Source of the DNA: Candidatus Altimarinota bacterium
GTDB taxonomy: Bacteria; Patescibacteriota; Gracilibacteria; BD1-5; UBA6164
Direction: 5' to 3'
Assembly (NCBI GenBank): GCA_027066455.1
Contig: JAMONT010000037.1
Span: 1 to 41,308 of the forward strand
DNA: 41,308 bases
The notes under the pieces were generated by a model. It saw only the letters and a program-made list of their open reading frames with translations. It made no database searches and was not told where the DNA came from. Of this stretch, positions 7,511-27,971 are shown piece after piece; the stretch's first letter is position 1, and each line of letters opens with the position of its first letter. The position numbers were made by a program, and so were the translations under genes.

Positions 7511-8344
7511 ATGAAAAATATAAAAAAACAAAATAAAATAAGAAAAATTATAATTATTATTTTTATAATCTTTTCTCTTGTTTTTATAACTTTTTTTATA
7601 CAAAATAAAAACTCAAAAGAAAATTTTTTAGCCAAAAAAATAATAATAACTAAAGAAAAGTTTTTAAAAAATCCTGAAAAAATCTCAAAAATAATTATAA
7701 ATAAAAATGCTGAAAAAATAGTAAAAATTATTTCAAAAAAAAAATTTACTATCTATAAAAATAATGATTATTTTCAAACTCCTATAGAAAATTATATAAT
7801 AAATAATAAAATAATTAATTGATTTTTTATAACAAATAATTGAATTATTTTGACAAATAAACATATTTTAGAAGAAGAAAATATTCAATATATTTGAATT
7901 ACAAATGATAAAAAAAAATATAAATTAAAACTTTTATGGTTTTCAAAAAATGAAGATTTAGCTATTTTCAAAATTTCAAATATAAAAAATAATTTTTTTT
8001 CTGAAAAAGTAGAATTTGTAGAAAATAATAAAAAAATTAAAAATAATGATTTTATTTTTAGCTTAAATTCAAATAAAAAAATTTTTAGCTGAAAAATAAT
8101 AAATAAAAATTCTACTCAAGAAATAATAGATAATTTTTATGAAAAAAATATTATAAAAAATCTTTTAGAAACTAATTTAAAAAATAATTTATGAGATAGT
8201 GGTTCTCCTGTTTTTAATCTAAATCAAAAAGTTATTTGAATAAATTCTTTTATAAAAAATAATAAAACTTATTCTATTTATTTAGATGATGAGAAGATAA
8301 GGAAAATTTTAAAAGCCCTCTCTCTTGAATTCTCTCTCCCTTAA
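7511..8344 (+). CDS. Trypsin-like serine protease, membrane-anchored
   Basis: 277 residues. One hydrophobic segment at about residues 12-31 would anchor the protein with its domain outside. The chymotrypsin-fold catalytic triad is visible: His118 (TNKHIL), Asp149 (EDLAIFKI) and Ser230 (GDSGSP, whose first Gly is TGA). This resembles the protease domain of HtrA/DegP-type enzymes, but there is no PDZ domain. The last nine residues (ALSLEFSLP) and the stop codon's context come from palindromic repeat R2, so the original C-terminus appears to have been replaced or trimmed by the repeat. It lies 32 bases after ftsW. Surface quality control is a plausible but unproven role. Confidence 0.85.
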
Positions 8345-8363
8345 AGGGGAGAAAGAGGCTACA
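8315..8363 (+). repeat. GC-rich palindromic repeat R2, at protease 3' end
   Basis: Starts CCCTCTCTCTTGAATTCTC and continues through a hairpin (CTCCCTTAAAGGGGAG) to GAGGCTACA. It supplies the last protease codons and the spacer before the MetX-like gene. R2, R5 and R6 are nearly identical in their first half. Confidence 0.85.
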
Positions 8364-8390
8364 AAAATAAAATAAATAATTTTAAAAAAA

Positions 8391-12495: not shown

Positions 12496-12524
12496 TTGAC
12501 TTTTTTGTTTATTTTGTATATAAT
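12496..12524 (+). promoter_or_regulatory. Near-consensus sigma-70 promoter of small RNA 1
   Basis: -35 TTGACT at 12496-12501 and -10 TATAAT at 12519-12524, spaced 17 bases. This is the best promoter in the window with optimal spacing. The predicted start is A at 12531, giving a transcript that begins ACAAAAAA. Confidence 0.85.
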
Positions 12525-12530
12525 GTTTAT

Positions 12531-12605
12531 ACAAAAAAGGTGTGTTGGCCTGTGGAGAGTGTAGCGTATGCGCACTCTGTGAAGCAGGGGAAACCCCTTT
12601 TTTTT
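12531..12605 (+). ncRNA. Structured small RNA 1, partner of DUF3800 gene
   Basis: A 75-nt GC-rich island between a near-consensus promoter and a run of eight T. The RNA folds as one long imperfect hairpin. The lower stem is AAAAAAGG...CCTTTTTT. Next come CCTG/CAGG (12549-12552 / 12585-12588), an internal loop TGG / GTGAAG, then a perfect 6-bp stem AGAGTG/CACTCT (12556-12561 / 12573-12578), topped by a small GC-GTAT-GC hairpin. It shares the blocks GCCT(A)GTGGAGA and TCTRTGAARC(T)AGGGGA with the RNA at 27858-27937. Both lie tail-to-tail with a DUF3800 gene. It codes for no credible peptide. I considered 4.5S SRP RNA, but the Ffh-binding loops are absent. Confidence 0.8.
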
Positions 12606-12606
12606 G

Positions 12607-13227
12607 TTATTCTAAAATTATAAAACTAATTTCTTCATTTACAAAATATTCTATAAAATCACTATCTATCTCTTCTCTTTTAGTAATATAAACATTATTT
12701 AATTTTCAAGCAACAAAATCAGAAAACTTAATTCATCAATATTTTTTTGAATTACCAAAAGTAAAAGTAAATTTACTTTTTTTTATTAAACTTTTTTTCT
12801 CATTTAAAAGTTTTTTTATTTTTTCTTTTTTATAATCAAGCTTTATATTATCTGCAATAATATTTATTGTTTCAAATTTTTTATTCAAAATATTAGAATA
12901 TTTTAATGTATGATAAATTAAAATTTTTAAAGATTCAAAATAATTTTTTCAACTTTCCTTATAATTTTTAGCAAAAATTCAAATAAATTGAATTTGTTTA
13001 GAATATTTACTATATTTTATAAAATTATAAAAATACTCTATTTTATCTCTATAATTTCTATCATAACTTTTTATTTCTCAACCTTTTTCTTTTATTCAGG
13101 TATGGTTCAAAAAATCACAATAAATTTTATCAATAGTTCAAGGTTTTAAACTTGTAACCAAACCTGCTAAAATAAATTTTCATCATTCTTTATGTAAAGC
13201 CTTACTCTCATCTAAGAATATATACAT
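12607..13227 (-). CDS. DUF3800 family protein, copy 1
   Basis: 206 residues. It opens MYIFLDESK, the DUF3800 N-terminal signature (hhhDESG) with Lys for Gly, and ends with the family motif GGIKFSDFVAGKLNN (cf. lqlADlvAg). The spaced acids Asp6, Glu7 and the C-terminal Asp suggest an RNase H-like metal site; this is inference. It is paralogous to the protein at 27221-27859, sharing SGTIDKIY..FL, K(G)EIKS.DR.Y..KI and the C-terminal motif. The stop codon lies one base from the end of small RNA 1, encoded on the opposite strand. DUF3800 proteins are common on mobile and defence islands, with no settled activity known to me. Confidence 0.85.
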
Positions 13228-19380: not shown

Positions 19381-19430
19381 CCTCTCTCTTGAATTCTCTC
19401 TCCCCTTTTTGGGGGAGAAAGAGGCTACAA
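19381..19430 (+). repeat. GC-rich palindromic repeat R5, intergenic
   Basis: Starts 21 bases after the pseudopilin stop: CCTCTCTCTTGAATTCTCTC, then a hairpin (CTCCCC TTTTT GGGGGAG), then AAAGAGGCTACA. It has the same orientation relative to the upstream gene as R2 and R6. Confidence 0.85.
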
Positions 19431-19465
19431 ATTAAAAATTAATTAAAAATTAAAATAATAAAAAA

Positions 19466-25322: not shown

Positions 25323-25374
25323 TCCCTCTCTCTTGAATTCTCTCTCCCCCCTTATAGGGAGAAAGAGGCTACAA
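25323..25374 (+). repeat. GC-rich palindromic repeat R6, intergenic
   Basis: Begins four bases after the beta-propeller stop: CCCTCTCTCTTGAATTCTCT, then a hairpin (CTCCCCCCTTATAGGGAG), then AAAGAGGCTACA. Nearly identical to R2 and R5. Confidence 0.85.
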
Positions 25375-25406
25375 AAAAACATTTTAATTTAATAACTTAC
25401 ACTATT

Positions 25407-27220: not shown

Positions 27221-27859
27221 ATGATAATTTATTTAGATGAATCAAAAAAAATAAATAAATGAAAAAAATGACAATATATTTTTTGATGATTAATTACAAC
27301 ATATAAATCATGAACAATTGATAAAATATATAATGAATTTTTAGAATATGCTTGAATAAAATATAAATGAGAGCTAAAAAGTAATGATAGATTTTATAAA
27401 GAAAAAATAGATGTTTTTTATGAATTTTTAGAATTAAAATGATATATGAAAAATATTGAGTTTTGTTGAATTTATATTGATGAATACAAAGAAAATTGAG
27501 AAAATTATATTGAAATGTTAAGTATTTTATCTGAATTTATTATTGAAAAAAGTAAGTTTAAAGGTAATTCTTTTTCAAAAATTCAAATAATGTCTGATAT
27601 TATAAAACTAGATAAAAAGGAAAAATATATAAATAAACAATTGAATTGTAATTTAGTTAATTTAAAGAAAAAATATTGTATAAAAAATATTTTGATTGAT
27701 TTTTATAATTCAAAAAATTATTGATGAATAAAATTTTCTGATTTAATTGTTTGAATTTTAAGAAAACAATATATAAATAATAAAGAAAAATTAGATTATG
27801 AATTTACTCAATATTTCATAAATAAAGAAATAAAAATTATAAAATATTTAAATAAATAA
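27221..27859 (+). CDS. DUF3800 family protein, copy 2
   Basis: 212 residues. Opens MIIYLDESKK (DUF3800 signature, Lys for the usual Gly) and closes with YGGIKFSDLIVGILRKQYIN. Shared with copy 1 are FGGLITTYKSGTIDKIYNEF, GELKSNDRFYKEKIDVFYEF and the C-terminal block; the middle (about 100-160) is more variable. The acids near the N-terminus and in FSDL are candidates for a metal-binding nuclease-like site (inference). The stop codon overlaps the poly-A/T tract that terminates small RNA 2 on the other strand. It sits beside a dead Mrr-type endonuclease, a typical defence-island setting. Confidence 0.85.
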
Positions 27860-27937
27860 AAAAAAGAGCATCCCCTAGTTTCATAGACTACAGAATCACT
27901 CCATGATCTCCACTAGGCAAAAATCTCTTTTTTTTGT
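27858..27937 (-). ncRNA. Structured small RNA 2, partner of DUF3800 gene
   Basis: An 80-nt RNA read from the minus strand. It begins ACAAAAAAAAGAG and ends CTCTTTTTTTT, so its ends pair. Inside are CCTAG/CTAGG (27917-27913 / 27878-27874), an internal loop TGG / ATGAAA, then AGA/TCT and an apical hairpin (ATCA tggag TGAT). Blocks GCCTAGTGGAGA and TCTATGAAACTAGGGGA align with small RNA 1 (GCCTGTGGAGA, TCTGTGAAGCAGGGGA). RNA 2 has one extra A on the left arm and one extra T on the right, adding exactly one base pair. That paired change argues for a conserved fold rather than chance. Confidence 0.8.
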
Positions 27938-27943
27938 ATAACT

Positions 27944-27971
27944 ATTATATTAGACTTTTAAAAAATTGCAA
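27944..27971 (-). promoter_or_regulatory. Promoter of small RNA 2
   Basis: On the minus strand, TTGCAA (27971-27966) and TATAAT (27949-27944) are 16 bases apart. The seventh base past the -10 is A at 27937, giving ACAAAAAA as for small RNA 1. Confidence 0.75.

What the first reader, a model, noticed from the sequence alone, without database searches (positions are those of the whole stretch)
12496..13227. Small structured RNA locked tail-to-tail with a DUF3800 gene (locus 1)
A 75-nt GC-rich RNA has its own TTGACT-17-TATAAT promoter and an eight-T terminator. It points at the end of a DUF3800 gene on the other strand, with one base between the RNA end and the gene's stop. The RNA folds into a long hairpin with a conserved-looking internal loop (TGG / GTGAAG). 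The layout suggests an RNA-protein module in which the RNA is a cofactor, antitoxin, guide or substrate of a nuclease-like protein. I recall that comparative work (Weinberg and colleagues) named several RNA motifs after DUF3800 because they neighbour such genes. I cannot tell whether this RNA matches any of them, so it may be a new member in a code-25 lineage.
Basis: partly seen in the sequence, partly recalled or inferred. Interest (0 to 1): 0.9.

Follow-up and report, generated by a model that had tools for sequence, protein, structure and literature searches.

The report
Kink-turn RNA paired with DUF3800 nuclease
A roughly 75-letter RNA that bends into a kink-turn is encoded tail-to-tail with a nuclease-like gene of unknown role in tiny Gracilibacteria, and the two recur as a pair, which suggests a nuclease controlled by its own RNA, possibly a toxin with an RNA antidote.

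Summary
In detail: TTGACT-17-TATAAT, a ~75-nt GC-rich RNA (12531-12605, +), T8, one base, then the stop of a code-25 DUF3800 gene. The "TGG/GTGAAG" loop is a textbook kink-turn. Relatives show a conserved two-part unit: 17 of 17 DUF3800 loci of this protein clade (9 Gracilibacteria genomes) have the RNA tail-to-tail. In the 16 measured, the RNA 3' end lies -14 to +7 nt from the stop codon. Structure is supported by covariation (14 of 19 pairs change on both sides; 89% of cells paired against 35-47% when slid), and the kink-turn core is nearly invariant (17 RNAs). An independent RNA-model search found 18 credible copies: those 17, plus one solitary copy beside a different DUF3800. No Rfam 15 family matches. 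The known DUF3800-IX motif has the same layout, so this is a new RNA class in a known group; RNA class follows protein clade. One low-confidence protein model resembles RNase HII. Best reading: a toxin-antitoxin-like ribonucleoprotein in which the RNA binds and restrains a DUF3800 nuclease. The pairing is well supported; the antitoxin step is inferred. Rivals: active RNA cofactor, antisense control of the mRNA 3' end. Nothing was tested in cells.

The parts
12496..12524 (+). Promoter of RNA 1: TTGACT-17-TATAAT
   Evidence: exact TATAAT in 11 of 15 RNAs, TATACT in 1, TAATAT in 2, none in 1 (L007)
12531..12605 (+). Kink-turn RNA 1 (P1, internal loop, P2, kink-turn, P3, apical hairpin, U-tract)
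   Evidence: covariance model hit 12533-12607, 60.9 bits, E 6.8e-12 (a training member)
12549..12588 (+). P2 (12549-12553 with 12584-12588), kink-turn non-bulged strand GGA (12554-12556) and bulged strand UGU-GAA (12578-12583), C-helix P3 (12557-12561 with 12573-12577)
   Evidence: same core conserved in 17 distinct RNAs
12598..12605 (+). Eight-T terminator tract; outer helix P1 = A6GG 12533-12540 with the C-C-T run
12607..13227 (-). DUF3800 gene 1 (206 aa, code 25), DESK motif
   Evidence: Pfam PF12686 2.2e-7, over cut-off; alignment A1
27221..27859 (+). DUF3800 gene 2 (212 aa, code 25)
   Evidence: Pfam PF12686 3.4e-5, over cut-off
27860..27935 (-). Kink-turn RNA 2, tail-to-tail with gene 2
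   Evidence: 63.7 bits, a training member; fold z -3.24
27944..27971 (-). Promoter of RNA 2: TTGCAA-16-TATAAT

Best explanation
Each unit of ~750-780 bp encodes an RNase H-fold (RNase HII-like) DUF3800 protein and, convergently, its own small kink-turn RNA made from a separate sigma-70-type promoter. The RNA folds as one bent hairpin whose kink-turn and helices are recognised by the cognate DUF3800 protein, forming a ribonucleoprotein. Most likely the RNA keeps the nuclease in check, as an RNA antitoxin acting on the protein does in type III-like systems such as AbiF/RCd22, so the pair behaves as a toxin-antitoxin or abortive-infection module. Shown here from sequence: the RNA structure, promoter, tight tail-to-tail coupling and joint inheritance. 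Inferred: expression, binding, nuclease activity, toxicity and neutralisation.
For: Pairing: 17 of 17 loci of the clade carry the RNA; stop-to-RNA distance -14 to +7 nt in 16 measured. Structure: 14 of 19 pairs with changes on both sides, score 0.632 against at most 0.140 when slid. Kink-turn letters GGA/GAA: 16, 17, 17 and 17, 17, 17 of 17. Joint inheritance: RNA and protein distances correlate, r 0.93, 11 loci; DNA similarity between copies in unlike contexts is confined to gene plus RNA plus promoter. RNA class follows protein clade: kink-turn group one side of a branch, 91/94 support, 0 of 500 shuffles. Enzyme: acidic D6, E7, E51, D126, D170 invariant in 7 rows; dN/dS 0.16-0.29 in six pairs; one model matches RNase H2 structures, Z 8.2-6.8 in the top 14 rows. 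TA-like habits: patchy (13 of 48 family genomes have any DUF3800 match), several copies per genome, 6 of 17 genes broken or truncated while 17 of 17 RNAs remain detectable, neighbours PemK and AbiE in G030 and PemK in G022. Precedent: AbiF RNA RCd22 binds and neutralises its protein (PMC12373285, abstract and passages).
Against: No transcript, binding or toxicity data. The RNA is a single convergent gene, not an array of repeats upstream of the toxin as in type III TA. Both protein models are low confidence (pLDDT 57.9 and 56.9); the window protein's own model matched nothing, and Z near 8 can occur by chance (note). One paralogue pair has dN/dS 0.61. Broken genes with intact RNA may reflect target size (620 against 75 nt) or draft-genome errors. 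Enrichment of TA neighbours is not shown statistically. PADLOC has no match for the window proteins.
Confidence: 0.45

Rival explanations
1. The RNA is an active cofactor or substrate: DUF3800 is functional only as an RNP (for example in defence or RNA processing) and the RNA positions or activates the nuclease rather than inhibiting it.
For: Same pairing evidence as the main reading. DUF3800 joined to Cas12a2 systems was suggested to act in interference or crRNA handling (PMC10910872, passages). RNAs with broken genes could serve other copies in trans.
Against: No free guide-like segment: the RNA is almost fully folded and ends in its terminator; no recurrence of RNA sequence beyond shuffled level in 8 loci.
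Confidence: 0.28
2. Type I-like antisense control: the convergent RNA pairs with the 3' untranslated region of the DUF3800 mRNA and limits its translation or stability.
For: The two transcripts must overlap if the gene has no terminator before the RNA; gap -14 to +7 nt.
Against: Unpaired kink-turn letters and compensatory pairs are conserved, which antisense pairing does not need. A solitary RNA in G002 (L051) keeps the fold with no overlapping DUF3800 gene.
Confidence: 0.15
3. Plain bidirectional terminator between convergent transcripts, without an RNA function.
For: A-run before and T-run after the stem can end transcription on both strands.
Against: Promoter placed upstream in 14 of 15 RNAs, strand-specific kink-turn in 17 RNAs, RNA class tied to protein clade.
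Confidence: 0.04
4. Transposon-type RNA-guided system like IS607 TnpB with its RAGATH-18 reRNA.
For: Best Rfam neighbour is RAGATH-18 through the shared kink-turn; RNase H-like fold; unit found in different contexts.
Against: Far below RAGATH-18's cut-off (21.0 against 44.9 bits); RNA not downstream on the same strand; no guide; no TnpB family among 20 window ORFs scanned.
Confidence: 0.05

Closest known systems
DUF3800-IX RNA (Rfam RF02968) with DUF3800 genes
   Same: Small RNA of about 70 nt, tail-to-tail with a DUF3800 gene: 10 of 17 RNAs in the phylum sample, 2 head-to-head, 3 with none found, 2 at contig ends. Solitary extra copies also occur.
   Different: Three-way-junction type fold without a kink-turn; partner proteins belong to the DESGD/DDSGD clade, not the DESK clade.
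RAGATH-18 RNA (RF03064) / IS607 TnpB reRNA
   Same: Same kink-turn rules: -1b:-1n C:G, 3b:3n A:G, 4b:4n G:U (PMC8191799, passages); partner of an RNase H-fold nuclease.
   Different: Sub-threshold score, different outer helix, no guide, different protein, opposite-strand layout.
AbiF/RCd22 and type III toxin-antitoxin systems
   Same: Small structured RNA beside a nuclease-like protein; RNA-protein neutralisation is the proposed action (PMC12373285, abstract and passages).
   Different: There the RNA lies upstream, with repeated motifs and an Abi_2-family protein; here a single convergent RNA and DUF3800.
RNase HII (RNase H2)
   Same: Best structural match of one DUF3800 model and a similar order of strands and acidic residues; the D-E-D-D comparison with RNase HII is recalled.
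   Different: No sequence match to a relevant solved structure; function untested.

Membership tests
DUF3800 (PF12686) | Score over the curated cut-off | tested here: met
   32.1 and 25.0 bits against 21
DUF3800 (PF12686) | RNase H-like fold with acidic active site | tested here: inconclusive
   Acidic residues conserved; one model RNase HII-like, Z up to 8.2 at pLDDT 56.9; the other model matched nothing
Rfam DUF3800-associated RNA motifs | Match to a family's covariance model at its gathering score | tested here: not met
   No DUF3800 family at any listed threshold for the window RNA or the RNAs of 13 loci; motifs of the 2017 paper that are not in Rfam could not be tested (paper not held)
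Rfam DUF3800-associated RNA motifs | Consistent neighbourhood of DUF3800 genes | tested here: met
   18 of 18 credible RNA hits, 17 tail-to-tail and 1 head-to-head with a different DUF3800
RAGATH-18 (RF03064) | Gathering score 44.9 bits | tested here: not met
   21.0 bits, E 0.069
RAGATH-18 (RF03064) | Kink-turn consensus | tested here: met
   against the rules in PMC8191799
RAGATH-18 (RF03064) | Position next to IS607 TnpB | tested here: not met
   None among 20 window ORFs scanned with Pfam
Standard kink-turn | 3-nt bulge, tandem G.A pairs, C-G at -1 | tested here: met
   GGA/NNNGAA in 16 of 17 distinct RNAs (the other has AGA); G-C at -1 in 16 of 17, G-U in 1
Standard kink-turn | Folding on metal ions or L7Ae binding | not testable with these tools
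   No experiment; no L7Ae-family match in 47 family genomes, control found in 8 of 14, weak because of code 25
Type III toxin-antitoxin | RNA antitoxin as tandem repeats upstream of the toxin | tested here: not met
   Single convergent RNA
Type III toxin-antitoxin | RNA neutralises toxin by binding the protein | not testable with these tools
   Needs expression and pull-down
Type I toxin-antitoxin | Antisense pairing controls toxin mRNA | not testable with these tools
   Layout compatible; conservation pattern argues against it as the sole role

The most novel reading that the evidence does not exclude
DUF3800 proteins are a broad family of RNase HII-like toxins or defence nucleases, each clade locked to its own class of tail-to-tail RNA antitoxin; the DESK clade of Gracilibacteria has evolved a kink-turn RNA, defining a new kind of RNA-antitoxin system and explaining the long-orphan DUF3800 RNA motifs.
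Probability: 0.35. Interest if true: 0.82.

Novelty: new variant of a known kind. Interest (0 to 1): 0.62.

Why it matters
DUF3800-associated RNAs have been listed for years; six literature searches of the held library showed no functional study of a DUF3800-RNA pair. A compact unit with a predicted kink-turn, a sharply defined partner clade and several natural pairs in one genome makes RNA-protein specificity directly testable in E. coli. If it is an RNA antitoxin system, it adds a nuclease fold not recalled for such systems.

Tried and rejected
Empty-site test: the 29 other miaB loci held (39 other genomes had a match) showed no rluD, mutL or DUF3800 beside miaB, so gene order is too shuffled to find an empty site. 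Pfam and Rfam family searches of the own genome missed the window's own genes, probably because of code 25 and divergence; protein and alignment searches replaced them. The own-genome RAGATH-18 search gave two weak hits elsewhere (17.5 and 14.3 bits) and did not list the window RNA.

Phages, plasmids, viral contigs: no relative of the window proteins in phages or viral contigs; none for the distant relative L037 in viral contigs, and two weak plasmid matches for it; no DNA match of the module in plasmids. The genome-contig scan found only two of the known loci. The RNA model found nothing outside this genome in a phylum sample (1 of 379 genomes, the own one).

Solitary and spurious RNAs: L054 (E 0.007) lies inside a coding frame and was dropped before counting. 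L051 is kept but is not tail-to-tail with a DUF3800 gene. L007 lacks a recognisable -10 box.

Structure: the window protein's model (pLDDT 57.9) gave no fold match; a relative's model was used instead. The solved-structure sequence search gave only chance hits. TA enrichment: PemK 3 of 121 neighbour ORFs (the 121 include DUF3800 ORFs); in 84 control ORFs it is not among the 25 families shown of 98, so a single control match could be hidden; PADLOC matches occur in both sets. No enrichment is claimed.

Full report
What is there. The RNA is GC-rich in a 20.8% GC window and folds better than all 200 shuffles (z -2.87). The gene is DUF3800 by Pfam, above cut-off, in code 25. A second pair sits at 27221-27935 with the same tail-to-tail layout.

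The internal loop is a kink-turn. The 5' side U-GGA-G and the 3' side C-UGU-GAA-G give 4n, 3n-1n, -1n and -1b, L1-L3, 1b-3b, 4b. These are the pairs reported for the RAGATH-18 kink-turn: C:G at -1, A:G at 3, G:U at 4 (PMC8191799, passages only). Rfam's nearest family for the window RNA is indeed RAGATH-18, but far below its cut-off (21.0 against 44.9 bits, E 0.069). At gathering thresholds the whole window has no Rfam hit.

Relatives. A protein search of 194 relatives found matches in 7 genomes; a profile search found 18 of 386 at E up to 0.01, the weakest being chance-like or distant. Merged with the RNA search, the close clade has 17 loci in 9 genomes, four of them in this genome. All 17 carry the RNA, tail-to-tail. 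Two relatives are named records of Candidatus Gracilibacteria. In the 16 loci measured, the RNA 3' end lies between 14 nt inside and 7 nt beyond the stop codon.

Covariation. On 15 RNAs, 89.1% of cells are paired against 35-47% for slid controls, 13 of 19 pairs change on both sides, score 0.641 against at most 0.150. On 17 distinct RNAs, including two found only by the model, the figures are 89.2%, 14 of 19 and 0.632 (that alignment is fitted to the model). The kink-turn letters are near invariant while the three loop bases vary.

Reverse test. The RNA model searched 289 relatives and hit 11 genomes with 19 places. One (L054) is inside a coding frame and was dropped. Of the other 18, 17 are the known loci (one, L062, with a degraded gene) and one (L051, genome G002) is solitary: it faces the end of a ribonucleotide-reductase-like gene (named by eye, not by a family search) and lies head-to-head with a 249-aa DUF3800 of another type. 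In a phylum sample only the own genome of 379 matched, so this RNA class looks confined to one family of Gracilibacteria.

A known sibling. In other Patescibacteria, DUF3800-IX RNA (RF02968) has the same layout. Of 17 RNAs in 13 of 239 genomes, 10 are tail-to-tail with a DUF3800 gene, 2 head-to-head, 3 have none within about 1.5 kb, 2 lie at contig ends. Within the window's own family, three DUF3800 genes of the DESGD type have tail-to-tail structured stretches; one is DUF3800-IX above cut-off, and two look similar but are not detected by Rfam. On a tree of 25 proteins the kink-turn group (12) is one side of a branch (91/94, 93% of bootstrap trees, 0 of 500 label shuffles). RNA class therefore follows protein clade. 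This is my strongest reason for a physical partnership, together with the distance correlation (r 0.93, permutation p 0.0001, 11 loci); common descent of linked sequences contributes to both.

Unit of inheritance. DNA similarity between copies in different contexts spans the gene, the RNA and its promoter and stops there (for example 87.5% over 785 bp within this genome, 93.5% over 771 bp between genomes G004 and G030). Three pairs (L007/L011, L023/L024, L017/L021) share some flank, so vertical descent occurs as well. No terminal repeats were seen by eye. An empty-site test failed.

The protein. Acidic residues D6, E7, E51, D126, D170 are invariant in seven rows. A low-confidence model of a relative (pLDDT 56.9, pTM 0.62) matches RNase H2 structures best (Foldseek E 2.3e-4 for the top row; Z 8.2 to 6.8 in the top 14 rows, all RNase H2 or H3). 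The window protein's own model matched nothing. An RNase H fold for DUF3800 was reported earlier (PMC10910872, passages). Selection keeps the protein (dN/dS 0.16-0.29 in six pairs), except for the in-genome pair at 0.61.

How it may work. Shown: structure, promoter pattern, pairing, joint inheritance. Inferred: the RNA is transcribed, binds the protein and restrains it. Hints toward a toxin-antitoxin habit are patchiness, copy number, broken genes beside intact RNAs, and toxin-antitoxin neighbours in two genomes: a PemK gene and an AbiEi/AbiEii pair next to two tandem modules in G030, and PemK next to the module in G022. A wider neighbour count does not establish enrichment. The nearest worked-out precedent is AbiF with RNA RCd22, where the RNA binds and neutralises its toxic protein (PMC12373285, abstract and passages). 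Guide function is disfavoured.

Verdict. A real RNA class absent from Rfam 15, of the known DUF3800-associated kind. I put about 0.9 on an RNA-protein module and 0.45 on the restraining role.

Noticed in passing
window 8317-8365, 19381-19431, 25325-25375: Dispersed intergenic repeat of the form CTCTCTCTTGAATTC...hairpin...AGAGGCTACAAA, also just upstream of two other DUF3800 genes of this genome (L011, variant in L012). Possibly a REP-like element.
   Followed up: partly
L015, L016: Another repeat (CCCCCTTACTAAGGGGG...GGCTGAAAGC) lies directly upstream of RNA promoters in two relatives.
   Followed up: no
L051:2386-2430: The 249-aa DUF3800 of genome G002 has its own, different hairpin right after its stop codon; it may be a further small DUF3800-linked RNA.
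   Followed up: no
L115 and L116, downstream of the DUF3800 genes: Structured tail-to-tail stretches resembling DUF3800-IX but not detected by Rfam.
   Followed up: partly
L016:758-6605: Row of defence and toxin-antitoxin genes (DUF4143 ATPase, PemK, AbiEi, AbiEii) followed by two DUF3800-kink-turn modules in tandem.
   Followed up: partly
L025:952-1023, L108, L109: Extra DUF3800-IX RNAs just upstream of, and head-to-head with, DUF3800 genes.
   Followed up: no
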